Of a DNA stretch of 33,813 nt, positions 7,261 through 33,802 are shown piece by piece. This stretch comes from Fragilaria crotonensis. Taxonomy: Eukaryota; Bacillariophyta; Fragilariophyceae; Fragilariales; Fragilariaceae. The translations under genes and the position numbers were made by a program. The DNA is taken from assembly GCA_022925895.1 (NCBI GenBank), contig JAKSYS010000670.1, positions 1-33,813 of the forward strand. The letters are read 5' to 3'. Under the pieces are notes generated by a model. That model was not told the DNA's origin. It searched no databases and was given only the letters and a program-made list of their open reading frames with translations. Within the stretch, counting starts at the first letter, position 1. Every line of letters starts with the position of its first letter.

Positions 7261-8299
7261 GGGAATGCCTAATGCACTAAAACTTAAGGAGCAAACTAAA
7301 CACTAAACCAATCAGAATCCGCGGAGACGTCATCATTTCGAGTTTCGTCCTCAATGACTATTTGCACCCCCCTCTCTAAATAAAGCACTTCGATCGAGGC
7401 TTTGAAAAATTCGATCATGCATATTCGTATACATACATAATCTTAGACACATGTAAGAGAGGATCTTCATGTGCATTCGAGTTTTGAACTCACATTCATT
7501 TATGCAAATGCATGGGCATACGATATATACGATATACGTAATCTGTATGCACAAGGACTTGTATGCATACATTGTACCAGGTTGGCGTGTCTTCGTACAA
7601 ATCGGCTCCTGAAATACTACGAAGACAAATCAACGATCGTCTGATACTGGATGTCTACGGGAGTTTGTCGTCGTGTACTACAGTAGCACGTGACATGTAT
7701 TGATATGAAAACAGTAAATCGATACGAATGCAACTACTTCAGTACGAGTAATGCTACTACGACAGTACGCCATACAACATGTTTCCGTACGCCGGTGTTG
7801 TTGTCAGGTGAGACCCTTGGAAAAAATGCGATGAAAATCAATCAAAACAGCTTCACTCCCATGGTCACTACAACTGACAGACTACAATTGCTACATGAAT
7901 AGAGGATACAGATTGGAAAGTTAAAAGGGTCAACTACAAGAGAATGGACCCTCAACTGTCAACAGTTGAGGGTCCATATCACAAAATACAATTTAATTGT
8001 TTTGTGCTCATCCGGATGCGTACCAGTCTTTCAAGACCGTTTCACGTGATTCTACCTACTGTGGACTACGTAAGTTTAATAGTGCAGTACTATTTTCCTT
8101 ATCTAATTTCAAAACTGGACGTTGAAAACGTAGCGTTGCGATGCCGGCGTGCAATTTGAATATACATTTATATGCATGTATAAGATAACGATCACCTCAG
8201 ATGACTATTTTTACCCCTCTCCCCTATGACGTCTCCGCGGATTCTGATTGGTTTAGGGCTTTAGTTTGCTCCTTAAGTTTTAGTGCATTAGGCATTCCC
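7261..8299 (+). mobile_element. Non-autonomous TIR DNA transposon, copy 1 (1,039 bp; Mutator-like by TSD length)
   Basis: The element begins GGGAATGCCTAATGCAC and ends with its reverse complement. Terminal inverted repeats of about 73-74 bp run 7261-7333 and 8226-8299 and differ only at a few bases near AAACACTAAACC versus AAAGCCCTAAACC. It is flanked by a perfect 9-bp duplication. A second, nearly identical copy in the same orientation is at 15030-16078. No transposase is encoded: the longest open frame is 70-73 codons and resembles nothing. Known families: a 9-bp duplication with long TIRs is typical of Mutator-like elements, so a non-autonomous MULE is the best guess. Both TIRs carry a TGACGTC-type word (7326-7333 and 8227-8233). 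Differences between copies are mostly 1-3 base indels, indicating recent movement. Confidence 0.9.
7944..7977. repeat. Perfect 16-bp-arm palindrome inside TIR element copy 1
   Basis: ATGGACCCTCAACTGT is followed by a 2-base centre (CA) and then its exact reverse complement. The same hairpin is kept in copy 2 at 15720-15753. It could form a cruciform or an RNA hairpin; no function can be assigned. Confidence 0.9.
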
Positions 8300-13744: not shown

Positions 13745-14457
13745 CGTCCCGATTACTGGTTATGAGCCGTATTTCGACCCTAATTTTAACGTCTTCTCAG
13801 AAATGCATCATACATCTTCTGAGCAAAATATTAAATCTTTTTGTTTAAGTAAATTGCCGGCCATGACCACTCTTCCGTCGGCGCGCATTTTTGTAGGCTT
13901 GAGCTCTCGAGCAAATCTGCGTTCCTCCACTCAGATGCCGTACTTGCACTACGGTGATGGACAATGATGATGGCACACTAAAGGAAGCCACCATCGTCAA
14001 ATGTTGAAAACACACCATCAAAGTAGCTACGAGATATCTTAATAATATTAAGCAGCAGCTAATTGCAGAAATACATGATCCACAATGCATTCTTCCAAAA
14101 TACTCAATGATACTACCTGTAGGTGGTGGACCTGCAGGACCAACTAGTAGACAACGTGATCCAGACTTGTTTGTGCCGATACAATGTCATGGACAGCTCA
14201 TGGCCATCACCCTTCTTGCCCTTTTCAGAGTCTCCTCCCTTTCCCATTCCATTTCCAGAATTGTCATTGGCGTCACCTCCTTTGCCTCCCTTGCCCTTAC
14301 CATAGTAGTCATGGTTGTCAGTTCCCCTTCTGTCCATTCCAGAGTCTCCTCCCTTTCCGGCGTCATCATCGTCACCTCCTTTTCCTCCCTTGTCCTTACC
14401 AAAGAAGTCATTGTTGCCATCACCCTTTCCAGAGTCTCCTCCTTTCCCTTTGCGTAC

Positions 14458-14489
<32 letters not shown>

Positions 14490-15020
14490 ACTTCCTTTGC
14501 CCGTGGTACCACATTCGTCATCGTCGTCTCCCTTGTTCACCTTTGCAGAGTCTTTGCCATCTCCCTTTCCAGAACCTTCTTGCCCTTACCATCATAGGCG
14601 TTATCGACGTCGCCCTTCTTGAAGGAGTCCCTTCCGGAGTCATCGTTGTCACCTCCTCCTTTGTCGATACCGTAGTCTTCGTTGTCGTTGCCCTATCCAG
14701 AGTCTCCAGCCTTACTAACCTTTCGGAATCATCATCGTCGTCACCTCACTTGCGCACCCTTTCCCTGCGAAGGTCATCGTCGTCGTCGCCCTTCTTGTCC
14801 GTTCCGGAGTCCCCTCCCTTTCTCTTTTGGAATCATCATGGTTGTCGTCTCCCTTCTTGTTGCCCTGCTTCCGGAGTCTTCTCCCTTGCCCTTACCAAAA
14901 ATTGTCGTCATCGACCTTGTTGTTGTTTGCCTTTCCAGAGTCCCCTCCCTTTCCGGAATCGTCGTCGTCGTTGTTGTGGTTAATGAGCAATCGCTCAACA
15001 GATTGCTCATTGTCAGTTAG

Positions 15021-15029: not shown

Positions 15030-16078
15030 GGGAATGCCTAATGCACTAAAACTTAAGGAGCAAACTAAACACTAAACCAATCAGAATCCGCGGAGACGTC
15101 ATCATTTCGAGTTTCGTCCTCAATGACTATTTGCACCCCCCTCTCTAAATAAAGCACTTCGATCGAGGCTTTGAAAAATTCGATCATGCATATTCGTATA
15201 CATACATAATCTTAGACACATGTAAGAGAGGATCTTCATGTGCATTCGAGTTTTGAACTCACATTCATTTATGCAAATGCATGGGCATACGATATATACG
15301 ATATACGTAATCTGTATGCACACCAAGGACTTGTATGCATACATTGTACCAGGTTGGCGTGTCTTCGTACAAATCGGCTCCTGAAATACTACGAAGACAA
15401 ATCAACGATCGTCTGATACTGGATGTCTACGGAGTTTGTCGTCGTGTGTACTACAGTAGCACGTGACATGTATTGATATGAAAACAGTAAATCGATACGA
15501 ATGCAACTACTTCAGTACGAGTAATGCTACTACGACAGTACGCCATACAACATGTTTCCGTACGCCGGTGTTGTTGTCAGGTGAGACCCTTGGAAAAAAT
15601 GCGATGAAAATCAATCAAAACAGCTTCACTCCCATGGTCACTACAACTGACAGACTACAATTGCTACATGAATAGAGGATACAGATTGGAAAGTTAAAAA
15701 AAGGGTCAACTACAAGAGAATGGACCCTCAACTGTCAACAGTTGAGGGTCCATTGTCGCAAAATACAATTTAATTGTTTTGTGCTCATCCGGATGCGTAC
15801 CAGTCTTTTCAAGACCGTTTCTACGTGATTCTACCTACTGTGGACTACGTAAGTTTAATAGTGCAGTACTATTTTCCTTATCTAATTTCAAAACTGGACG
15901 TTGAAAACGTAGCGTTGCGATGCCGGCGTGCAATTTGAATATACATTTATATGCATGTATAAGATAACGATCACCTCAGATGACTATTTTTACCCCTCTC
16001 CCCTATGACGTCTCCGCGGATTCTGATTGGTTTAGGGCTTTAGTTTGCTCCTTAAGTTTTAGTGCATTAGGCATTCCC
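15030..16078 (+). mobile_element. Non-autonomous TIR DNA transposon, copy 2 (1,049 bp)
   Basis: Same element and orientation as 7261-8299, with the same GGGAATGCC ends, about 74-bp inverted repeats and the internal palindrome. The 10-bp length difference comes from several 1-3 base indels (for example four versus seven A before GGGTCAACT), plus a few substitutions near the palindrome. It is inserted into the coding part of the Gly/Lys/Asp-rich pseudogene inside the larger TIR element, so it arrived later than that element. Confidence 0.92.
15720..15753. repeat. Perfect 16-bp-arm palindrome inside TIR element copy 2
   Basis: Identical to the hairpin at 7944-7977 although the bases directly after it differ between the copies. 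Confidence 0.9.
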
Positions 16079-19171: not shown

Positions 19172-19230
19172 ACACAAGGCGATGGACACTGTGCAGTACC
19201 ACCACAATTGGAACGGTGTGCGGCGGGGAT

Positions 19231-19398
19231 GGCGTATGGCGTATGGCGTATGGCGTATGGCGTATGGCGTATGGCGTATGGCGTATGGCGTATGGCGTAT
19301 GGCGTATGGCGTATGGCGTATGGCGTATGGCGTATGGCGTATGGCGTATGGCGTATGGCGTATGGCGTATGGCGTATGGCGTATGGCGTATGGCGTAT
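19231..19398. repeat. Heptanucleotide satellite GGCGTAT x24
   Basis: Twenty-four perfect units, separated from the previous satellite by 62 bp of unrelated sequence and ending 301 bp before the EMC2 start codon. Open frames through it are artefacts of the 7-bp period. Confidence 0.97.
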
Positions 19399-19462
19399 GG
19401 CCGTCGTTCACTTGCAAAATCCACCAGCAATTTCTGACGAAAGCGTAGAAGTCTCTAGTAGA

Positions 19463-21911: not shown

Positions 21912-22116
21912 ACTCCGAGTTCCGAGTAGTCTCTGAACACTCTCTGGTCAATGCTCGAGCTAGTGTGATAGTGTGATCAAGAAGATACGGAATGTCTTTC
22001 CCTCACAAGCAAGATTTGGTTTGGGTTGTCACAGGAATCAAAGGTATACAGTATCACGCAAGCACGCGGTACCAGTACACAGTACACGTACCCTGGAACC
22101 CTGGTAAGGCTGCGTA

Positions 22117-22121
22117 CTCTT
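22117..22121. repeat. 5-bp target-site duplication, left (CTCTT)
   Basis: CTCTT precedes the 5' LTR and recurs at 33798-33802 after the 3' LTR. Confidence 0.93.
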
Positions 22122-22720
22122 TGTTAGAGATCTACTGTCACTCTGTCACACTGTCACTCGTAATTACTGTAAGGTTAAATACCATACGGTAATACGGTAG
22201 ACAGTCCTTTATTTTCCTTCGTCTGTCCGTGACTCGTGCCATTAGTTCTGCGAATCAGAACTCTGGATCCCGCGACCACACAAGGAATTTAAATCATGTT
22301 GCCCTGAGTTTCCCTAAGTATTCAAATCTGTTATGTTGTCAATTTTATTGACAACACAACTTTTACTATGGGATTCATAACTCAAACACCACTCAACAAG
22401 TGGGATTAAAGCAACATAACTTTTGTGAGACTCCAACTAATATTGGAGATCTCACTTTCATTTTTCATCTACATTTTAACTTATAATTTCCACAAACCAA
22501 AAACAGTAAAGGCCTTTACTACTTAGTTCTACATCTTCTACATATTTGTAACAACAAATCTACCATCATGGTCCACATCTTCAGGACTCCTACGCCCAAA
22601 GCTGGACGATCCGTCACGTTCGCTTCCTCTCCGTCAAGTCCGACGGCAGACTTCTAGGTCCTACTAACCTTAAGTCTACCGTCGGCCAGTACTCGCGTAC
22701 CGATCACACGAATACTGTCA
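22122..22720 (+). repeat. 5' LTR (599 bp)
   Basis: Begins TGTTAGAGATC and ends AATACTGTCA. It contains an ATG at 22568. The frame from this ATG closes at TAG 22655-22657 because one C is missing at about 22631 relative to the 3' LTR. Confidence 0.96.
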
Positions 22721-23208
22721 TGGTTGCTCGCCTCGTACCACCGGTCCAAGGCTCTACCGTCGAGGAAAAATACTCGACCAATGTCTCCGATCATTGGTCG
22801 AATCTACCTACGGCCGTTAAGAACCTACGCTTAACTGCTATTAATTTCCCTCGCCTTTTGGATTCGCCAGCAACGGATTTAAACTCACCCTTGAAGGCAA
22901 CAGAACTTTTTAAGTCCACCATGCAGAACTTACCTCCGCCCTCCCTTGCCCCTCGCGCCTCTAGGTCCGCCTCCAAAGGCGCTAACCCTGACGCGTTCGA
23001 CGCTAACGTCGACTACCCCGCCGAACTCGGCGCATCTCCTGTCCCTCCTGACACGCCCACCCATCCCGCCCTCTACAAAGGTGCCCTAGCCTATGGATCT
23101 CCGAAGAAATCCAAGCTCCCCTCCCGTGTCCGTTACATCCCTTCTCCAACCACTACCCCTGATGACGATCAGGACCTCCCAAACAACAAGAAGAAGAGGC
23201 ACCTCTGA
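22568..23208 (+). pseudogene. N-terminal part of the retrotransposon leader/Gag ORF, starting inside the LTR
   Basis: The ATG at 22568 lies in the 5' LTR. With the base present in the 3' LTR copy restored, the frame would cross the LTR end and primer-binding site in frame with the ATG at 22720 and continue to TGA 23206-23208. In this copy the intact part is 22720-23208 (162 codons). The product is Ser/Pro/Lys-rich and basic near its end (NNKKKRHL) with no known domain. A Gag ORF that starts in the LTR is known from yeast Ty1. The next ORF overlaps in the +1 frame, so a second shift near 23200 is needed to connect them. Confidence 0.7.
22721..22735 (+). other. Primer-binding site position (TGGTTGCTCGCC...)
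   Basis: TGG directly follows the 5' LTR, as expected for pairing with the CCA end of a tRNA primer. I cannot identify the tRNA from sequence alone. Confidence 0.45.
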
Positions 23209-25774
23209 GAAAGGTCCCGCCTATTTTGACGTCTGCAAGTTAACCTCCGACGACATCGATGATATTATTGAAGAGGATCGCAACCTCCACCCCGACGAGC
23301 GCAAGCAGCAGGCTTTTGCAGCTCCACCACAGCAGGACACTAAAGTTAGCCACAGGGCTACTTCTACCACCAAGAAGGCTGCAAAGATGCAGACCACTAC
23401 AACCACAACTACCATGGACAACTACTACAACAAAATGGGCGAAACTACAAACAAAAACGGTCCAACTACCTTACCTGCTGCATCTACCAATGTTATGAGC
23501 AATAACATTGGACCTACTGATGTTTTACTACAGAGGAGCACACTACTACCGCCGCCAAGCGCCGCACTAACCCGAAGACACAACGTAATCGATCTCACCG
23601 ATGATACAAACGACTTGAAAACGCCCCAGAAAGCTCCAAATTCGCCTCCCACGCTCACCTACAAGTCCAGAGCCAACACTCCAAGCATTCCAACCGCAAA
23701 AGTTACCACCTTGACCAACTTTGCCCAACCTGCTCACAATCCAATTTTTCAAGCTCCCGGGTGCATGAATCCATCTGGCTTCACCACCCTTCAGAAGACA
23801 TGCAAAGATCTCCATGACTGTCTCTTTGCTCATCTCTTTAACCTCCCATTCCATCCTTCACCATCAAGGTATCAGCCTCCCCCAGCCAGAAAGCAATGCC
23901 AGGGAGAATCCAAAGAACCTCCCACACTCATCCACCCCAGTCATCCTGGCCTGGAGTCAGAAATCGCCACTTTTACCCACAGAATTGCTTCCTTCGGTTA
24001 TGCTCCAACCCTCACTGAGTTTACTGGCTTTCTACAGCATCATGAGGACCTTGAAGACCTTGTCATAATTGCCATCAAGATGACTGGAGATGAACAGTTG
24101 ATGCCCATTCTTGATTTGCTCATCCTCGTTCGCAGCGTAATCGGGCAACGAAACTCACACTCCGTGCCGCCAGCACACCGTATGGTCGACATCCTGGCCA
24201 AATTTGAGCGAATTCCGACAGATGGTTCTCGAGAAATGACTGTTCAAAATTTTCCCTCGCCCCCGCGCGTATTGGTGGACGTCGACAACTCTGCAGCCTC
24301 GCGAACGCAAACTATGACGTGTCATGACCGCAGTGCTGAACTCGGGACTCGTAATTTTTGTGCCGAAACTCCAGATTCCGTCCAAACTCCCTTCGCGTCA
24401 GCGCCACAGTCCCCCGACAACCGCCGTATTTACAGTCCGTGTTATCCCGAGACACCGTCCCCGCGTCCCAACTTCAATGACCATTCTGCCGATGACGCAT
24501 CCACTCGACCATTTTCCCAGCCCGCTTCGCCTACCGATGACTCGTTTGATATTGACCCTTTTGTCCACTTTGCACCACGCGGCCCCCTAACTGCTGAAGA
24601 AAAGGCCTTGGAATCGTACTGTGATGATGATGATACTGTCGAGTTTACTGTCGTGGACGGTACGGCGATCCAATCCAGTCCACCCCAGTGTGCCTACAGA
24701 GCCCACAATCCCACTGATCCCAGCCTTTCCTCCACTTCCTTGAGTGTCCAGCATCCTGTTCCTATCAAATTGGAAGATTTACCCCTCTTCCCTGACCCTG
24801 ATTGTGCTGATGTTGGTGAAAATTATTACTCCCCCAGTGATAATTCACCAACTAAGCCATCTGTTAACTTTTACCCTGCTTCTGACCCTGTTCCTGACCC
24901 TGAAGTCTTACCAGAAGTTGAAATCATGCCAGAACCCATGATCATTGAAAGCATTGAAGAGGAATTTGTGGAAGAAACAGCAACTAACCCAATTTTGGAA
25001 GCACTAAATGAGCTACCCAAAGCAGCAACTCAACAACCAGTCCGGATGCTACCCCCACTTTTTCCTGAACCGCCCCTAAGGCATTTGAATCCTCTTGCCC
25101 CAGTTCACCAACGCCCTTATGCAATGTTCCAGGACCCAGCTCACCATCCATCATCGGCCTTGATGTTCTCAGAAGCTACGCTGGACGACCCACTGAACGG
25201 TACCATCCATCTACGCGACCTACCGCTTTGCATCGAAATCAGCACCACTATCGCAGCTTTCTGTCTCAACTTTCTCGCCGCTCCACCGGAAGTTCATCAC
25301 ATTCGCGACATCACGTCATCCGACATGAAGCCTATATCGCGCCACATCACTCTCAGACATCAGATGCCAAGTCCTAACTCCCCTCGGTATTCCCGCGACG
25401 ACAAGTTCTACCTACTCGGCATGATTCACACTCTGAACCGTGCTACCAACTTGCTAACCCAGCATTTCACCGACGAACAACGCTCCCTTTTGACCTTCGG
25501 CATCCCGGATAAGTACTACGACATCACCCGCGACTTCTACGAAAACCCTCCCCACTGCCCGATGGAAACGCAATGTGCTGTCGGACTCATCTACGCGCTC
25601 CGACTCTACTACATAACCCACCACCGCCACAGCACATACCACCGACACGGATTTCGTCAACACGACCTCTACCCGAAACACTTGTTCCAGATCGCCAAAG
25701 ATATCAAGTCTACCGCTGCCGCTCTAAGTTTGTTCCTGATACCACTACTTTTCGGACGCTCCCCGCTTTGCTAA
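23093..25774 (+). pseudogene. Large leader ORF of the retrotransposon, unknown function (893 codons)
   Basis: The longest open frame of the window. The likely functional part starts near 23205, after a frame change from the preceding ORF: EKGPAYFDVCKLTSDDIDDI. It is Pro/Ser/Thr-rich and partly acidic, with VIDLTDD (residues 165-171), a good SUMO-interacting-motif match. A Thr-rich run lies near residues 100-110 and an acidic DDDDT patch near 510. The C-terminal third (about 700-880) is more ordered and helical, with a His-rich patch (HHRHSTYHRHGFRQH). No zinc knuckle, protease or polymerase motif is present. The frame is lost at 25774 but protein-like sequence continues in other frames. It lies between LTR and Gag, where copia elements normally have nothing. 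It could be an extended Gag N-terminus or a captured gene; neither is proven. Confidence 0.6.
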
Positions 25775-27817
25775 CCATGCCTTCTTTGAAGCCGATCTTT
25801 TCCTGCCTTTGCATTCCTTATCGCGGATTGAAACGCTATCGGAAAATGTTTCGCGTGGACTTGAATTTCGCGCGCGAATCCCTATCTTGTCGCATACACG
25901 AATTCTTTTCGATTGGACGACGAACAACGATCGATTGCCTTACGAACTGCCCAGACAATCATCCGCCTTGCCTTATTCGAACATGGTCTCATTAATCGCA
26001 AGACGCGACGACGATCGAGGGAACCAGAATTATCCAACAACCGCTTCCATATTGGCAACCTTCCACCTGCAGATCTATTCTTGTCCAACTTTGCAACCTG
26101 CTTCCCCATGATTACCAGGCCCTCCCTTGTTCAATTGGATCTTGATGATGTCAATGATGACACACTTGCAATCAACTATGTGGTCTGCCAACCTCTGGAC
26201 TTCCTCCAACTGTTTACCCTGCAACCAACTGAAGCAAATGAGGAAACCTACTACATGGATGTCTACTCTGACCTCACTCCAGTCCCTACCAACGGCATCA
26301 ACTTCTCGATTGACTTCCTTCCGCACTTCGAGTATATCCTCTACCGAGTTGCGCAACTTGTGAATCCAAAGGACCCGACCGGCATTCTCCCAGGAACCAT
26401 CCTCCTCCCCACGTTATCATGTTCCAAGGCTCCCACTTGCGTCCAACTCCTACTCTAATGGTTCATCAACTGAGATTGCTAAACCTACAGCAAGAGCAGG
26501 AATCTTCCCCACCACTTTCAACCATGATCAACAACCAATCATCAGCAACAGAGATGGAGAACCCTACAACAGATTGTCAGTCCAAGCTTTGTTCAAAGCC
26601 CAACTTGCCAAACCAATTCTTTCCTATCACATTGGCGACCCGACTGGATTCCAATCAGCGCCGCTAACCTGCGTCGCCACCCTGATTCCAGTAAGTATCA
26701 CGTCGCTCGCGATCCCAAAACGGTCCCCTTTTCCTTGGCTATTCGCATGATACCAGTTTTCACAACTGGTCCACTTGAGGAATCAATCTATCAAGCCTGG
26801 GCATTGCCACATCTCATTGATGCCCTCCGTGACCCTGAGATCCAACTTTTCAACAATCATCTTTCTTATTATTACAATGAGAAAGAGTCTCATCCTGAGT
26901 TTCCATTCATTGATCAAATGGGACCTGATTCACCCTTTTCAGCCAATGGCTACAATGGTGAGTCTAGTCTACAATGTCTGTCTTATCCTGGTTGTTATGC
27001 TGGTTACTTACCTTTTTCTATCTGTGATAGCCTAGGCTGTCCCAATCAGATGGAATTAGTTACAAGTAACAACATAATTACCTTCCAACAGGATAAAACT
27101 ACATTTTCTGGACCACATTTCGCATGTCTTGCCGTAAAACTCGCCGTTCCGCTTTATTTTCCGATCCGACTCGAACCCCGGACCCCAGCACGAAATTTCT
27201 GCACAAAACGACCCACAAAACGAAAATCTTGCAGAAACGAACCTGAAACTACAGTTTTCACGCACGATGAACCTGACAGCGAAATTTACACACAAACTGA
27301 CACTACCAGCGAAAATCCAACACAAAACGACGCGCACAGCACGGAAACTCAATCCCAACAGCTAATTTCCGACGCGGAAACTACATACGACGAACACGCA
27401 CAAGAAACTCAACAACTGCCCGGAACTCAACCAAATCTCGCATTTTTACCACCAAACTCGCCCGAAACAAGTAGTTCACACACCGAAACACCCTCTAACT
27501 CGCCTCCAACTGCGAAATCAACAACTGGACCTCTAAAACGCTTCTCCGATGCATTTTCAGGCATCCTCACGCCGAAAAACGTAAAATTACCTCACGATCC
27601 GGCCACAACCGACTCGAACCCACAACCTCCGATTTCAACAACATTTTCGACGACGCCCAAAATTATACCTTCCAAAAACTTACCACCCCGAATTCGAACC
27701 TCAACCACCAAATCCATCACAAAATCTTTCGCAACCCCAAACTCAACAAAGCAAAATTATTCAACCCCCAATACGAAACCTACCAAATCTACACAAAAAC
27801 GGCCAATTCTGAAATGA
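25775..27817 (+). pseudogene. Continuation of the retrotransposon leader protein in shifted frames
   Basis: After 25774 the best protein-like reading moves between frames: 25809 onwards (LSRIETLSENVSRGLEF), then 25913-26458 (TAQTIIRLALFEHGLINRK, NDDTLAINYVVCQPLDFLQL), then another frame near 26460-26700 (AGIFPTTFNHDQQPIISNRD), then 26700-27817 (PFSLAIRMIPVFTTGPLEES, ending in a Thr/Ser/Pro-rich, basic tail). The last piece has no ATG until 26747. Composition and spacing suggest one long ancestral protein continuing the preceding ORF. No domain is recognised. Confidence 0.55.
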
Positions 27818-29346
27818 TCACCAAACTCCCCAGAAAATCAAAAACTCGCTTCCGCGCCCAACTCCGCGCCAGGCGACCCATGCCACTTTGCATACCCACC
27901 AACTGTCGACACCTTCTTTGACGACGACACCGATCATGATTCAGAGCAAGACCCAAAACACATCCAGCACACATCACCTGATGCACTCACATCCTCCACG
28001 CGACCGACTTCACTTACCCCCAATTGAAGACCTAACCAAGACGCTCTTGAAGTACGCCAAAATGCAAACCTTCGCAAATTGGCTTACCCAACCGACCTTC
28101 AACACGCCGCCGCCATTTTAACACCTTCATCGACAACCTTCGAATTGTTTGCAACATTTCCCCGTGGACGCGCCAAGTCTTTGATCTTTGGCCACAACAA
28201 GTCTCTTATTCACACCCATTTGTTGGCACCGCACTTTACAACCTGATCTTTACAAACGTCTGCGACCCTTGCCAAAAACACATCATTGATGGCCCACCAG
28301 ACGCCCGCACCGCGATTCTTACTCTACGACGCCATTGCGCACCGCTAACTCCTGAGCGAACTCGCGAAGCCTTTTGTTCCATCAAACAACCACATCATGA
28401 AGTCGCCACCTCTTACCTTAACCGCATCCGCATCCTTACGCGCGACTGCTATCATGCTGGAATCCCCAACACCGACGCCGAACTCATCAAACGCACCGTT
28501 CGTGGTGGAAGCAATCACTCCTTTTACGCCGCATCTTATCAACGCTTCGACGCCGATATCCGTCGAGCTGAACTAAACGACGAAGCTCTGCCACCATTCG
28601 CCGAACTTGAGAGCCATCTCCTCAACATTGACGAATCCCGTGGTCTCACACTACCGTCTCAGAATCAACGCAACTACAATCAGCACGCACATTCTACCCG
28701 TCAACAATCTCACCATTTTCAATCGCGCCACCCCCAAACTACCCATCGTGTTTTCACACAACGTCAACAACAAGCTTTCAGCTCCATCCTTCGCCCATAT
28801 TCAAACCCTAATGGCAACAATCAAAACCGAAGTCATCCACCAAGACCACCGCAAAACCATTCGCGCCCGTTCCGACCACCTACAACTCCTTCGCGACCAC
28901 CCTTCAACAATCCAAATCAACGACGCCCACCACCTCCTTCACCGCGCCCGTCCAACCAACACCAACGAAACAACCGCCCCCCTTTCCGACCAACGTCGAA
29001 TCCAAATCAACGACCATCACCCAATGGATCTAACATCAATCAATCGCGCAACTCTGCATCCAACGCCGCTACCATCGTCTGCAATAACTGCGGACGCCTC
29101 GGCCACTATTCGCGCAACTGTACCAACCCGCGCCAAAACAATCGCGCATCCAACCCGCAACGTTCAACCAACAATGAAAACGCTGCTCCTCGCAATCAAC
29201 AACGTGCTTACTTTGTCACTGACTCTAGTCAAGACTCCCAAAATCATTCAAGATACCATCACCAAGCTTTCAAAGCTTCTTCCTTGATCACCTTGATGAT
29301 CAACCAGACTACATCCCATGGCCCAATCCCAACCTACCTCAGATGA
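27818..29346 (+). pseudogene. Gag with CCHC zinc knuckle
   Basis: Reading starts near 27888 (frame with PPIEDLTKTLLKYAKMQTFA) and moves to another frame by about 28120, which stays open from 28051 to TGA 29344-29346 although it has no early ATG. The helical part (NTFIDNLRIVCNISPWTRQV, AILTLRRHCAPLTPERTREA, ATSYLNRIRILTRDCYHAG) looks like a copia Gag capsid region. It is followed by a long Asn/Gln/Pro/Arg-rich linker and then the nucleocapsid knuckle CNNCGRLGHYSRNC at 29080-29121, a perfect CX2CX4HX4C. Gag packages the RNA and forms the virus-like particle. Beyond the knuckle a frame change near 29275 leads into FFLDHLDDQPDYIPWP and the protease region. Confidence 0.82.
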
Positions 29347-29481
29347 CTATCAATCAACCCCTACTTGATAGAGATTATCTTCCAACTGCCAACCATGCTC
29401 CTCCCAACTCTGGAGCCACAGCTTATTTCCTGATGATCCCCAATCACCATACCAAAGATTTGGTCCCCACTCCTGGCAAAC

Positions 29482-29709
29482 TGGCTACCTGACAGTGGTG
29501 CTACCAGCCATTACACACCACTTTTCAGCGACCTCAGTGACGTTGTACCCTGCAGTGTCCCAATCTCCCTAGCTGATGGCAGCACCAAGATGTCTACCCA
29601 CAAAGGCACAACTGAATGTCACTTCACCACTGATGATGGCCTCAAATCCATCCTAGGTCTCACTGATGTCTACTTTGTTGAAGGCCTAAGTCACAGACTA
29701 CTCTCCTGA
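29482..29709 (+). pseudogene. Retrotransposon aspartic protease domain
   Basis: WLPDSGATSHYTPLF contains the catalytic D-S-G-A at 29491-29502, the usual copia form of the D-T/S-G active site, followed by a typical SLADGSTKMSTHKGTTE segment and GLTDVYFVEGLSHRLLS. It processes Gag-Pol. The frame ends at TGA 29707-29709 and the protein continues one frame over (LLTALSCTQNFSVLIKN). The upstream piece is also in a different frame. Confidence 0.85.
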
Positions 29710-30787
29710 CTGCTCTATCATGCACTCAAAACTTCAGTGTCCTGATCAAGAACAGAGCTACCACCATTCAACTCCCAAATGGCTCCACCTACACTTGGCC
29801 AATTCTCACCAGAGAAGTACCAAACCCACCAAGCCTTTTCAACCACTTCCAACCCCAAAGAACCCTTTGACCTTGACTCTGAACCAGAAGAGCAACACTT
29901 TGATGACACTACAACCCATTGACACTGATCAACGCCGCTCAGTCACCGCTTTACCTTTGGAACTGATTTATCGACGACTTGCTTACCGCAATTTTCGAAA
30001 TCTCATGGTTGGATCCCTTCACCAAACATGGAATGATCATGTTCTCACACCTACTGTTGACCACAATTCCTGGCCTCTCCGCATTTCCATCAGTCAAAAC
30101 GCGCCAGAAACAAAACACCTCAACGCCAAGGCACGAACCCTTCCATCGCCTTCATCTTGACCTTATGCGCAATCCTTCCGCTATGGTCTCACCACCAATT
30201 CCAACTACTCAGCCTATCTGTTTATTGTCACAACCCCAGGCAAACTAACAGGTTGGATTGGTCTTCCAACTGAAAGCACAACTTCCATCCTTATTGCTCT
30301 AAAGCAATGGCTTACTGACACAGAACTCCTTGGCACACAATCCGTCCGTTTCATCCGCACTGATGCTGGATCTGCTTTTACATCAACAAAATTCATCTCT
30401 GAATGCACCTCACTTGGTATCAAAGTTGAAGCTGCAGCCCCTGAACATCAAGAAATGAATGGTATTTGTGAAGCAAAATGGCGTGAAGTCCACAACACTG
30501 CCAACATTCTCCTCAACAATGCAAGACTTGGAGGTGCCTTCTTCCATCATGCCCATGCCTATGCAGTTCAAATCCTAAATGTCTGCCCTGCCAAGAATGT
30601 TATTGATCAAGATGGCAACCCAACAACTCCCTATCAATACAGCTTCCAACGCAAGCCTTCCATTGCCAACTTCCGCGTCTTTGGATGTCCTACCTTCTTC
30701 AAACGCTATGAACCAACTTTCCGCAACTCATCACCTACAAGCAACAACTGCAACGAGCCTCTCGCGGCATTTTCCTCGGTTTCCTGA
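29710..30787 (+). pseudogene. Retrotransposon pre-integrase and integrase domains
   Basis: A pre-integrase stretch (LELIYRRLAYRNFRNLMVGS) precedes the catalytic core. The three acidic residues are visible: Asp in HLDLM (30159-30161), Asp in FIRTDAGSAF (30362-30364) and Glu in PEHQEMNG (30452-30454), then KWREVHNTANILLNNARL and NFRVFGCPTFFKR. Integrase inserts the cDNA into the host genome. The region uses at least four frame changes (near 29709, 29870, 29922, around 30100 and around 30165). The long uninterrupted part is 30161-30787, and the protein continues in another frame at about 30760 (FPDNSAGWLVYSPDQ). Confidence 0.85.
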
Positions 30788-32476
30788 CAACTCCGCAGGC
30801 TGGCTAGTCTACTCCCCAGACCAACCCCAAAGCCTCATCATCACCCGCGATGCCTACTTTGATGAAGACTTCAATTCAGCTCTATGTTTTGATTCCAAAC
30901 CCTTTGCTGGAGCCATCCCCATCCGCTCCCATTTCAACCCAAATGGACTTTGCAACACTCCTGAAAACTCTGAACCATCTACTTTTCACCAAACTGGATC
31001 TGCAGCCAACCTTGGCAATCCACCATCAACCTTCATTGATGACACAAATCCACTGCCCTCCCTGACTGCCATCCCTGAATCAACTGATGACAATACTGAT
31101 GAACAACCACCTGCTGGACCATGCCTAACCCAACCCATGCTGACCATATCAATACAGCAATCATCCAACATGGTCCAACACCACCCACACCACATCAAAT
31201 CAACTTTGTCACCCATCAACAACATCATTCCCAACTCCACAAGATGATGACCATCTACTTCCAAGAATGCAATGAAGATCTACCAACCATTGATCCCATT
31301 CACTCTGCCATGATGACAATTGACAACTCTCCCAGCAACAATTCACAAGCCAACCCCCAGGAACCTGTGGACAAATATCTTCCAGAACCTCAGTCTCTCA
31401 AAGCTGTTCTCAAACTTGATGATAATGTCCGCAATGCTTGGCTACATGCAATCAAAATGGAAATCAAGAACCTCATTGACCATGATACCTTCATCCTTGG
31501 ACAAACCCCACACAAAGATGAACTCATTATCCCAGTCAAACTTGTGCTCAAAGCGAAACAAACTGCATCTGGAAAACTTGACAAACTAAAAGCTCGCCTT
31601 GTCGCCCGTGGCGACCTGGAGAAACGTCTCCTGAAAAGAGTTAAAGCCATCAACCAACAACGACTCCTCGAACAACGTCAAGAAATTGCTGAATCTGCTA
31701 CCTCTTCACCTGGCACTCCAAAACCTATACCTGTTGAACCACTCATGTATGAAGACACCTGGTCACCCTGTGCATCTGCAAGAGGGGTCAAGCTATTCAT
31801 TGCAACCATCTGTGCATCCAGAAGAAGTGTCAAGAGTGCTGACTTCATTGGTGCCTACCTCCAAGCCAAAGTTATTGGTCGCCACTTCGTGAAACTGCCA
31901 TTGGAATACGCCTATCACTTCCCTGAATACGCTAAATTCTTTGGCTCCCCAATGTTACTGAACAAAGGAATCTACGGTCTGTCTACTCCGGCAAATATTG
32001 GAACATTGAATTTTCGGAATGGCTCTATTCCCAAGGCTTCATTCAGTCTCCTTCCGAACCGTCCTATTTTGTCCGATACGACAAACACAATCAATGGCTC
32101 CGCCTACTATTTTCGTCGACGATATGCTCTACGCTGGAAGCAACGATTCCATCGAAAAACAATTTGAAGATTCCGTCCGCAATCGCTTTGATGTCAAATT
32201 CCTCGGCCCTGCGCAATGGTTCCTACAAATGCGTATCCACAAACATTCCGACTCAAGCTACACCCTCGACCAGCACCGCTATGTTTTGAATACTCTTCAA
32301 CGATACGATCCAAACTCCGAATTCCCAGAACGAGATACTCCCTTCCTCCCGATTATACTTTCAGCAAGGATAACCGCCCGTAACCGCCTCCGACCTGACT
32401 CGTCGAACAAAAGCAACAACGCCTTCCGTTCCGCTCTGCTGTCTGCACTCTCCTCTACCTAGCATACAACACAAGA
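30760..32476 (+). pseudogene. Retrotransposon reverse transcriptase domain
   Basis: The linker reads SAGWLVYSPD...TRDAYFDEDFNSAL up to about 31120. The polymerase then runs in the frame 31121-31980: NAWLHAIKMEIKNLI, KARLVARGDLEKR, EDTWSPCASARGVKLFIA and SADFIGAYLQA, with the first catalytic Asp at 31841-31843. After two frame changes come YWNIEFSEWLYSQGFIQSPS and then FVDDMLYAGSND (Asp-Asp at 32118-32123), equivalent to YVDD. KFLGPAQWFLQMRI and the thumb region HRYVLNTLQRY follow. All expected motifs are present, only the frame is broken. Confidence 0.88.
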
Positions 32477-33197
32477 GCTGACATCCTATTTGCTGTCTGC
32501 AAACTTGCTAAAGCATGCATCTCTCCTGGCATACCTGATTTTCGAGCTCTCACCTGGCTCATTGGCTACCTCCGACGTCGTCCCTACTATGCCCTCAAAT
32601 TCTATCCCGATGGCACTTCAAACCCCATCTATGACATCTGCATCCATCATCGCATTCCATACACTGATCTCACTGTCTTCTCTGATGCCAGCTGGCAAGA
32701 CTGCCCCGATACTGGCCGATCTACTGTTGGATACATGATCTTCTACAATGGTGCTCTTATTGAAGCAAATTCTACCATGCCAACACCTGTTGCCATGTCT
32801 ACCTCTGAAGCTGAATATATGGCTGCATGTTCCGCAACCATGGCCACCTCACATCCGAATGCTTCTCTATGATATGCTCTATCTTGGCACCAAACAATGG
32901 CGTGAAACCAAACGTCTCCCTTCTATCCCTGCCATCCTCATGATTGACAATGAAGCAACTGTTCAAATCGCCAAGAATGGCAAACTCACTCGCAAAACTC
33001 GCCACATTGAACGCCGTTTCCACTTCGTCCGTCAAGGCCAACAAGACGGCATCCACCAACTTCATTGGATTCCCTGTGACTCCCAACTTGCCGATATCCT
33101 CACCAAGACTCAACACTCCGGCAAAATTGATCCTCACCTCACCAAGATCTTCTGTGTCCCCGACCACATGCTTTCATCACCGGGACCAGAGATCTGA
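32477..33197 (+). pseudogene. Retrotransposon RNase H domain and pol end
   Basis: ADILFAVCKLAKAC and a typical FSDASWQDCPDTGRS start the copia RNase H. MSTSEAEYMAAC, then (after a frame change near 32850) LMIDNEATVQIAKN, KTRHIERRFHFVRQ and QLADILTKTQ complete it. The stop codon is at 33195-33197, ten bases before the 3' LTR. It degrades the RNA strand during cDNA synthesis. Confidence 0.88.
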
Positions 33198-33200
33198 TCC

Positions 33201-33207
33201 AAGAGGG
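33201..33207 (+). other. Polypurine tract (AAGAGGG)
   Basis: Seven purines directly before the 3' LTR, in the standard position for plus-strand priming. Confidence 0.75.
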
Positions 33208-33797
33208 TGTTAGAGATCTACTGTCACTCTGTCACACTGTCACGTAATTACTGTAAGGTTAAATACCATACGGTAATACGGTAGACAGTCCTTTATTTTC
33301 CTTCGTCTGTCCGTGACTCGTGCCAGTAGTTCTGCGAATCAGAACTCTGGATCCCCACACAAGGAATTTAAATCATGTTGCCCTGAGTTTCCCTAAGTAT
33401 TCAAATCTGTTATGTTGTCAATTTTATTGACAACACAACTTTACTATGGGATTCATAACTCAAACACCACTCAACAAGTGGGATTAAAGCAACATAACTT
33501 TTGTGAGACTCCAACTAATATTGGATCTCACTTTCATTTTTCATCTACATTTTAACTTATAATTTCCACAAACCAAAAACAGTAAAGGCCTTTACTACTT
33601 AGTTCTACATCTTCTACATATTTGTAACAACAAATCTACCATCATGGTCCACATCTTCAGGACTCCTACGCCCAAAGCTGGACGATCCGTCACGTTCGCT
33701 TCCTCTCCCGTCAAGTCCGACGGCAGACTTCTAGGTCCTACTAACCTTAAGTCTACCGTCGGCCAGTACTCGCGTACCGATCACACGAATACTGTCA
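33208..33797 (+). repeat. 3' LTR (590 bp)
   Basis: Same ends as the 5' LTR. Relative to it: 2-bp, 5-bp, 1-bp and 2-bp deletions, one extra C and one T-to-G substitution. Its ATG at 33644 opens a frame that reaches the end of the LTR. Confidence 0.96.
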
Positions 33798-33802
33798 CTC
33801 TT
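33798..33802. repeat. 5-bp target-site duplication, right (CTCTT)
   Basis: Exact match to 22117-22121; 11 bp of flanking host DNA follow to the window end. Confidence 0.93.

What the first reader, a model, noticed from the sequence alone, without database searches (positions are those of the whole stretch)
22720..27887. Copia-type retrotransposon with about 5 kb of extra coding sequence before Gag
Seen: between the 5' LTR and the Gag capsid/zinc-knuckle region lie some 5.1 kb that are almost continuously protein-like, including an 893-codon open frame, with no copia domain. Known: Ty1/copia elements are usually about 5-6 kb with Gag close to the LTR. Inference: this is either a greatly extended Gag or a separate protein (captured host gene or accessory factor), the most novel candidate in the window.
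Basis: partly seen in the sequence, partly recalled or inferred. Interest (0 to 1): 0.72.

Follow-up and report, generated by a model that had tools for sequence, protein, structure and literature searches.

The report
Copia retrotransposon with giant Gag leader
In a diatom genome, a family of copy-and-paste mobile elements carries about 1,800 extra amino acids in front of its capsid protein, read as one long frame with the rest of the element, kept under selection in several related families, and resembling no protein in the libraries searched.

Summary
The element runs from 22122 to 33797 (LTRs 22122-22720 and 33208-33797, TG..CA ends, 5-bp duplication CTCTT). The "leader" is not a nested insertion: all 21 further near-identical copies that I looked at (of 24) carry LTR, leader and capsid in one piece. 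Real copies show overlapping open frames in register from a start codon inside the LTR through leader, capsid, zinc knuckle and integrase into RT; one copy holds leader and capsid in a single 2,284-codon frame. The leader is therefore a Gag extension of about 1,820 codons. Frame breaks in the window look mostly like nanopore indel noise. The leader has a fast-evolving, probably disordered half (dN/dS about 0.5) and a conserved ~690-residue module (0.2-0.3) without credible Pfam, NCBIfam, PHROG or PDB relative. The module lies upstream of 107 of 137 related capsid places. One sister element (C354) keeps only the module's recognisable tail. The host is a diatom; assembly figures match Fragilaria crotonensis. 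Function is inferred, not shown: most likely a matrix-like, particle-associated Gag domain released by the element's protease. Verdict: a new variant of a known kind (Ty1/copia), moderately interesting.

The parts
22117..22121 (.). Target-site duplication CTCTT, left (right copy 33798-33802)
   Evidence: flanks GTACTCTT / ACTCTTGT
22122..22720 (+). 5' LTR (TG...CA)
   Evidence: alignments of the other copies begin at 22111-22123
22568..22570 (+). ATG inside the LTR where the long frame starts; a like ATG context stands in the LTR region of family B (L029), read by eye
   Evidence: first Met is residue 28 of the frame that begins at 22487; for L029, whose LTR end was not mapped
22721..22734 (+). 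Putative primer-binding site (TGGTTGCTCGCC...), crossed by the reading frame; tRNA not identified
   Evidence: sequence; inference
22568..25088 (+). Leader part 1: fast-evolving N-terminal half, about 845 residues, 64% P/S/T/D/E/N/Q/G/K/R, probably disordered
25089..27160 (+). Leader part 2: conserved module, about 690 residues; 33% identical between families A and C over the aligned 751-residue stretch; no credible known relative
27161..27999 (+). Leader part 3: polar linker to the capsid
28000..28740 (+). Gag capsid region (90% identical between families A and C; weak Retrotrans_gag match in family C, E 0.0018, under the cut-off)
   Evidence: naming it capsid is by position and this weak match
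29080..29121 (+). Zinc knuckle CX2CX4HX4C
29491..29502 (+). Protease active-site motif DSGA
   Evidence: motif meaning recalled
30161..30784 (+). Integrase core region (rve, weak; SH3-like region above cut-off in copy L018), upstream of RT as in Copia
31103..32459 (+). Reverse transcriptase region (RVT_2 match under the cut-off; FVDD at 32112-32126)
   Evidence: motif recalled
32399..33197 (+). RNase H region; frame ends 10 bases before the 3' LTR
   Evidence: motif reading recalled, no Pfam match
33199..33207 (+). Purine-rich stretch before the 3' LTR (likely polypurine tract)
   Evidence: inference
33208..33797 (+). 3' LTR; against the 5' LTR 1 substitution and 5 indels

Best explanation
This is a recently inserted Ty1/copia-type LTR retrotransposon, 11.7 kb long, of a diatom. 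Its Gag carries an N-terminal extension of about 1,820 codons. SHOWN: one reading frame starts at an ATG inside the LTR, crosses the primer-binding site and runs through the leader into capsid, zinc knuckle, protease region and integrase and into the RT region. The leader is present in all 21 further copies examined, is under purifying selection as protein, and occurs in at least three diverged families upstream of the same capsid. INFERRED: the LTR-driven transcript is translated from the LTR ATG into a polyprotein of about 3,540 residues. The element's protease cuts it, and the leader sits where retroviral Gag carries its matrix domain. Leader part 2 (about 690 residues) would be a folded, particle-associated domain that serves assembly, RNA selection, or intracellular targeting. 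Part 1 would be a disordered, rapidly changing arm, perhaps for host contact. The frame breaks in the window's copy are mainly long-read assembly indels in an unpolished repeat. My confidence is about 0.95 for the architecture and about 0.45 for the matrix-like, protease-released role.
For: 20 of 20 fetched copies align to the window in one stretch from the LTR through the leader at 96.8-99.0% identity, 19 into pol and one to its contig end at window position 28763; C840 adds a 21st to 29030. A chain of in-register overlaps without gaps: L010-L015 298 aa 98.3%, L015-L023 415 aa 98.6%, L023-L022 260 aa 99.2%, L022-L014 258 aa 96.9%, L014-L017 208 aa 96.2%, L017-L018 657 aa 97.1%, L018-window 254 aa 98.8%. 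C840 has leader and capsid in one 2,284-codon frame. Family C (C658) has both in a 2,498-codon frame; the part fetched is open through the zinc knuckle to the protease motif. dN/dS: N-terminal half 0.47-0.57, module 0.19-0.33, linker 0.35-0.37, capsid 0.03-0.17. Module upstream of 107 of 137 capsid places and of 39 of 42 gag-pol rows. LTR pair: 1 substitution, 5 indels. Indels between copies are mostly 1-2 bases long (1,156 of 1,282) and no rarer in coding parts (6.2-7.2 per kb) than in LTRs (3.6 per kb). Published assembly data: MinION R9.4.1, Canu, Pilon (PMC9476933, part 1 of 2 read).
Against: No copy that I read is open over the whole 3,540 codons, and the last kilobase of the frame (RT end to RNase H) was not followed in register. 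Many other pairs of overlapping pieces align with gaps or at 30-95% identity, since some open pieces (parts of L010 among them) slip into another frame for a stretch and stay open. No structure, transcript or protein data. In the one family D element read (C354) most of the module is missing or unrecognisable while the frame into the capsid stays open, and 30 of 137 capsid places have no module match upstream, so the module is not needed in every lineage. Substitutions between copies (7.7-22 per kb) exceed those between the LTR pair, and indels are about twice as dense in coding parts as in LTRs, so part of the indels may be real decay.
Confidence: 0.6

Rival explanations
1. The leader is a separate accessory protein (ORF1), expressed on its own before Gag, as in Ogre-type elements; the open junction to the capsid reflects read-through or lack of stops rather than a fusion protein used as such.
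For: Upstream ORFs are known: a 550-codon ORF before gag in Ogre (PMC1142308, passages), and an ORF1 looked for in diatom copia elements (PMC2806351, passages). The module behaves as a self-contained conserved unit.
Against: The junction of leader and capsid is open in A (L037, L017, L020), C (L038) and D (L039); a separate ORF would not be expected to keep it open in all of them.
Confidence: 0.2
2. A host gene was captured between LTR and gag (transduction) and now serves as an accessory factor.
For: The module is conserved, folded-looking and without retroviral relatives in the libraries searched. The presence/absence pattern between families A-C and D leaves a gain possible. 12 of 119 module places have no listed capsid match downstream.
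Against: Other eukaryotic genomes could not be searched.
Confidence: 0.12
3. The leader is an env-like or membrane protein that makes the element virus-like.
For: Large extra coding region; env-like ORFs are known in other LTR elements (PMC7264820, part 1 of 3 read).
Against: It lies before gag, not after pol. No convincing membrane segment: the best 19-residue hydropathy is 1.76 in A and 1.42 in C, at different places.
Confidence: 0.03
4. The extra 5 kb is a second element nested between LTR and gag, or decayed non-coding DNA.
For: Several frame breaks in the window copy.
Against: 21 of 21 other near-identical copies looked at have it contiguous; codon-level selection; open frames of 2,284 and 2,498 codons.
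Confidence: 0.02

Closest known systems
CoDi elements (Ty1/copia of diatoms; Maumus et al. 2009, PMC2806351)
   Same: Diatom host, copia domain order, TG/CA LTR ends in most families (23 of 26), a search for an ORF1 upstream of the polyprotein ORF2.
   Different: Full-length elements there measure 5,182-8,062 bp (section 18); this one is about 11.7 kb with a ~1,820-codon Gag extension. I could not read their Additional file 1, which describes ORF1, nor place this element on the CoDi tree.
Ogre / Tat-type Ty3/gypsy elements of plants
   Same: Large coding region of unknown function between 5' LTR and gag (550-codon ORF; PMC1142308, passages).
   Different: Ty3/gypsy, with a separate and much shorter ORF; here copia order and in frame with Gag.
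Burro giant gypsy-like elements of planarians (PMC6431247, passages)
   Same: Giant single polyprotein (4,873-aa ORF1) with extra domains.
   Different: Gag is at its N-terminus and the extra domains follow it; here the extra part precedes the capsid.
Ty1 of yeast (recalled, no call)
   Same: Gag start codon lies inside the 5' LTR; copia order.
   Different: Ordinary short Gag (about 440 residues, recalled); Pol reached by frameshift, whereas here gag and pol share one frame.
LGA elements of the brown alga Ectocarpus (PMC3145265, passages)
   Same: Stramenopile LTR element named after a large Gag.
   Different: Only a ~400-aa ORF is described in the passage seen; no giant leader.

Membership tests
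Ty1/copia (Pseudoviridae-type) LTR retrotransposon | LTR pair with TG..CA ends and 5-bp target-site duplication | tested here: met
   (window copy only)
Ty1/copia (Pseudoviridae-type) LTR retrotransposon | Order PR-IN-RT-RH (integrase before RT) | tested here: met
   integrase motifs at 30356-30481, RT FVDD at 32112, RNase H motifs from 32804; Pol_BBD and SH3_retrovirus above cut-off in L018; rve and RVT_2 below cut-off. Motifs recalled
Ty1/copia (Pseudoviridae-type) LTR retrotransposon | RT matches the copia RT model RVT_2 | tested here: inconclusive
   27.9 bits, E 2.2e-6, under the curated cut-off of 31.6; frame-broken piece
Ty1/copia (Pseudoviridae-type) LTR retrotransposon | Gag capsid followed by zinc knuckle | tested here: met
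   zf-CCHC E 4.2e-6, over the cut-off; Retrotrans_gag only weak, in family C, E 0.0018, under the cut-off
CoDi (diatom copia) | RT groups with the CoDi lineages in a tree | not tested
   no CoDi reference sequences at hand
CoDi (diatom copia) | Diatom host | tested here: met
   19 silicon-transporter matches, 18 over the cut-off, best E 4e-193; 61 chlorophyll a/b-binding matches
Ogre-type upstream ORF | Separate ORF before gag in a Ty3/gypsy element | tested here: not met
   leader in frame with gag and copia order

The most novel reading that the evidence does not exclude
The conserved ~690-residue module is a protein family with a fold not yet described, built into Gag of a diatom copia clade. 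It makes a second particle layer or host-interaction (matrix/tegument-like) protein, so that these elements build particles unlike known copia particles. Its core has been gained or lost between sister lineages.
Probability: 0.2. Interest if true: 0.75.

Novelty: new variant of a known kind. Interest (0 to 1): 0.52.

Why it matters
Copia Gag proteins are usually small and simple (recalled). A clade whose Gag is roughly five times longer, with a constrained module of unknown ancestry and a fast-evolving arm, asks what an intracellular retrotransposon gains from about 200 kDa of extra protein per Gag (mass estimated from length). It offers a natural test: leader-bearing families and a sister lineage without most of the recognisable module live in one genome, of a diatom that, if it is F. 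crotonensis, is in culture. It also warns annotators that such leaders may be called host genes or separate ORFs when long-read assemblies break the frame.

Tried and rejected
Nested element and copy-specific insertion: rejected. Duplicated capsid inside the leader: profile comparison of module and capsid gave probability 0.1%; low-stringency comparison of leader and gag pieces gave at best E 0.038 over 55 residues of polar sequence. Env-like membrane protein: disfavoured. Relatives in IMG/VR: none for the 893-aa ORF, the L018 gag-pol piece, A3, the family C module and A4 (222 and 132 pattern hits were not relatives). Pfam hits to leader pieces were chance-level: Lin-8 E 0.28, C5orf34-like E 0.17. 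PDB hits were weak and not credible: none by phmmer; best E 0.55, 1.5 and 0.43 by profile. NCBIfam gave nothing and PHROGs one chance hit at E 0.11. No tRNA found in 30 loci (the window itself not scanned), so the primer tRNA stays unknown. An rRNA pattern found nothing, so the species rests on silicon transporters and assembly figures. RT of other copia elements: of the first 54 RVT_2 rows, 4 lie within 9 kb of a module place, none on the same strand in element order by the rows. Papers: nine searches listed no title or abstract start that describes such a leader in a copia element; this covers only the listed rows of this open-access library, and Additional file 1 of PMC2806351 was not readable here.

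Rows dropped before counts: one search used the first 42 of 59 gag-pol rows (the other 17 lie on contigs already among the 42), 116 leader places made from 145 rows, and the first 54 of 150 RVT_2 rows. Searches used 119 leader places (three added). One search used 137 capsid places made from the rows listed (159 matches, not all listed; 150 of 300 candidates scored), joining or dropping second pieces of one place. One search used 113 of these 137; the 24 left out are among the 30 that one search had shown to have no module place within 3.5 kb upstream, so they could not change the count.
Full report
OBSERVATION. The finding is correct in substance. The element has LTRs at 22122-22720 and 33208-33797 with TG..CA ends and the duplication CTCTT on both sides, so it is about 11.7 kb. 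The 893-codon ORF is 23093-25774. Long open pieces cover nearly all of 22720-28000 on the + strand, and none of the five leader pieces scanned matches Pfam convincingly. Downstream are zinc knuckle, protease motif, integrase, RT and RNase H in copia order (some by recalled motifs only).

HOST AND SEQUENCE QUALITY. The genome holds 62.1 Mb in 881 contigs, 61 chlorophyll-binding matches and 19 silicon-transporter matches up to 646 bits, so the host is a diatom. Size and contig number fit the Fragilaria crotonensis SAG 28.96 assembly (61.85 Mb, 879 contigs, MinION R9.4.1, Canu, Pilon; PMC9476933, part 1 of 2 of the text read). This is a match of figures, not a proof of identity. The two LTRs of the window element differ by 1 substitution and 5 indels, and a second repeat pair in the window by 2 substitutions and 7 indels. 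Between the window and 20 copies, 1,156 of 1,282 indels are 1 or 2 bases long, and they are no rarer in coding parts (6.2-7.2 per kb) than in LTRs (3.6 per kb); the share in multiples of three is 2-7%, but 24% in gag. Most frame breaks are therefore best read as nanopore errors left in a repeat that short reads cannot polish. Real decay is not excluded, since copies also differ by 7.7-22 substitutions per kb and coding indels are about twice as dense as those of LTRs.

COPIES. A DNA search with the 893-codon region gave 59 matches. 25 of them, the window included, cover the whole query at 97-100% identity. I fetched 20 of the other 24; all 20 align to the window in one stretch from the LTR through the leader into gag, 19 of them on into pol, one to its contig end at window position 28763. 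A 21st copy, C840, does so to 29030. Three (C252, C38, C331) were not fetched. The segment is thus part of the mobile unit.

ONE FRAME. Each fetched copy is broken at different places, but a chain of open pieces overlaps in the same register without gaps: L010-L015-L023-L022-L014-L017-L018-window (overlaps of 208-657 residues at 96-99% identity). Together they cover 22487-32164. Other pairs in those calls align with gaps or poorly, because some pieces slip frame for a stretch and stay open. In the single copy C840 the frame is open from the LTR through leader and capsid: 2,196 codons to the end of my locus, 2,284 by the whole-genome search. L017 and L018 hold the zinc knuckle, the Pol_BBD domain and integrase matches in one frame of 1,228 and 1,093 codons. 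The first Met of the frame is inside the LTR at 22568; a like ATG context stands in the LTR region of family B (read by eye; its LTR end was not mapped), and the LTR-encoded residues are conserved (dN/dS 0.47-0.55 over 41-51 codons, few changes). From 22568 to the stop before the 3' LTR is about 3,540 codons; the part after 32164 is inferred.

FAMILIES. Family B (L029) keeps the leader at 34-51% protein identity in its main long matches, and 66% and 81% over the pieces that hold capsid to integrase. Family C (L038, C658) has a 2,498-codon open frame. Its module is 33% identical to A, its capsid 90%, and its N-terminal half is no more alike than shuffled sequence (14-30% per 50 residues against 20-22%). 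The 167-residue core of the module (26636-27136) has 145 matches from 100% down to 28% identity. 39 of the 42 gag-pol rows that I used have it upstream; three have not: C252 (whose gag-pol row lies 7 kb from the capsid row of that contig), C33, and C70, which begins near a contig end. With the capsid as anchor, 107 of 137 places have the module 0.4-1.5 kb upstream and 30 have not; from the module side, 107 of 119 places have a listed capsid match downstream and 12 have not, of which C91 and C369 are fetched copies that do have it. Ten of the 30, one of them partial, have capsids 79-80% identical to A. For one of these, C354, I read the 2,151 bases that end at the capsid. The frame is open throughout and fused to the capsid, but only the tail of the module is clearly recognisable (35% identity, E 3e-15). 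The 552 residues before it score against C's module core higher than all but 1 of 200 shuffles, a hint of remote likeness, and against C's N-terminal part, A's N-terminal part and A's module core no better than chance (17, 69 and 176 of 200 shuffles reach the score). So leaders differ between lineages, and the module core was gained in A-C, lost in D, or has diverged in D beyond recognition.

SELECTION. By Nei-Gojobori counts of the C840 copy against L030 and L029, dN/dS is 0.47-0.57 in the N-terminal half and 0.19-0.33 in the module; against L029 alone it is 0.35-0.37 in the linker and 0.03-0.17 in the capsid (with and without a local-identity filter; the filter lowers dN). An earlier count with broken pieces gave 0.22-0.65 in the leader, 0.31 in the L017 piece and 0.18 in the L018 piece, leaving out two leader pieces of 287 and 112 codons where dS was saturated. 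Between A and C dS is saturated.

WHAT THE LEADER IS. No credible relative in Pfam, NCBIfam, PHROGs, PDB sequences or IMG/VR. No duplicated capsid. No convincing membrane segment. 64-66% of the N-terminal half is made of ten polar or disorder-promoting residue types, against 53-57% in the module. Position (N-terminal to capsid, same frame), constraint and lack of enzymatic or membrane marks make a matrix-like, particle-associated Gag domain the most likely role. This step is inference, at about 0.45.

COMPARISON. Diatom CoDi elements are reported at 5,182-8,062 bp, and the authors looked for an upstream ORF1 (PMC2806351: section 18 and passages read; supplement not read). A study of LTR elements places CoDi-like elements in four clades (PMC2774666, passages). 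Ogre has a 550-codon ORF before gag (PMC1142308, passages). Burro has a giant polyprotein with the extra domains after Gag (PMC6431247, passages). Additional ORFs in plant LTR elements are most often between pol and the 3' LTR (PMC7264820, part 1 of 3). LGA elements of Ectocarpus have a ~400-aa ORF (PMC3145265, passages). A paper on long-read re-examination of two diatom genomes (PMC8147415, passages) gave CoDi counts but no such leader in what I saw. The element is a copia by order of domains, LTRs and duplication, with a weak RVT_2 score. Its leader makes it a new variant.

Noticed in passing
window 7261-8299 and 15030-16078: A second direct repeat pair of about 1,050 bases, 2 substitutions and 7 indels apart; probably the LTRs of another young element of about 8.8 kb.
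   Followed up: partly
window 18002 to at least 18703, and 19229-19410: Long tandem arrays: a 14-base period in the first, (ATGGCGT)n in the second, in stretches of higher G+C.
   Followed up: no
window 22001-33000: Strong C-over-G excess on the sense strand of the element (GC skew -0.21 to -0.45 in all 11 kilobase windows), reached elsewhere in the window only at 14001-15000.
   Followed up: no
G000 C350:56466, C515:125246, C79:20390: Other copia elements of the genome with RVT_2 inside open frames of 2,203-2,211 codons, longer than an ordinary copia polyprotein (recalled); they may carry leaders of their own.
   Followed up: no
G000 C97:29749-33762: Three silicon-transporter matches in tandem in one open frame of 1,456 codons.
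   Followed up: no
L039 (C354:8150-10300): Sister element whose leader keeps only the recognisable tail of the conserved module but stays in frame with the capsid.
   Followed up: partly
G000 C18:58069-60392: A rearranged leader-related copy at 81%, with one piece (72%) inverted.
   Followed up: no
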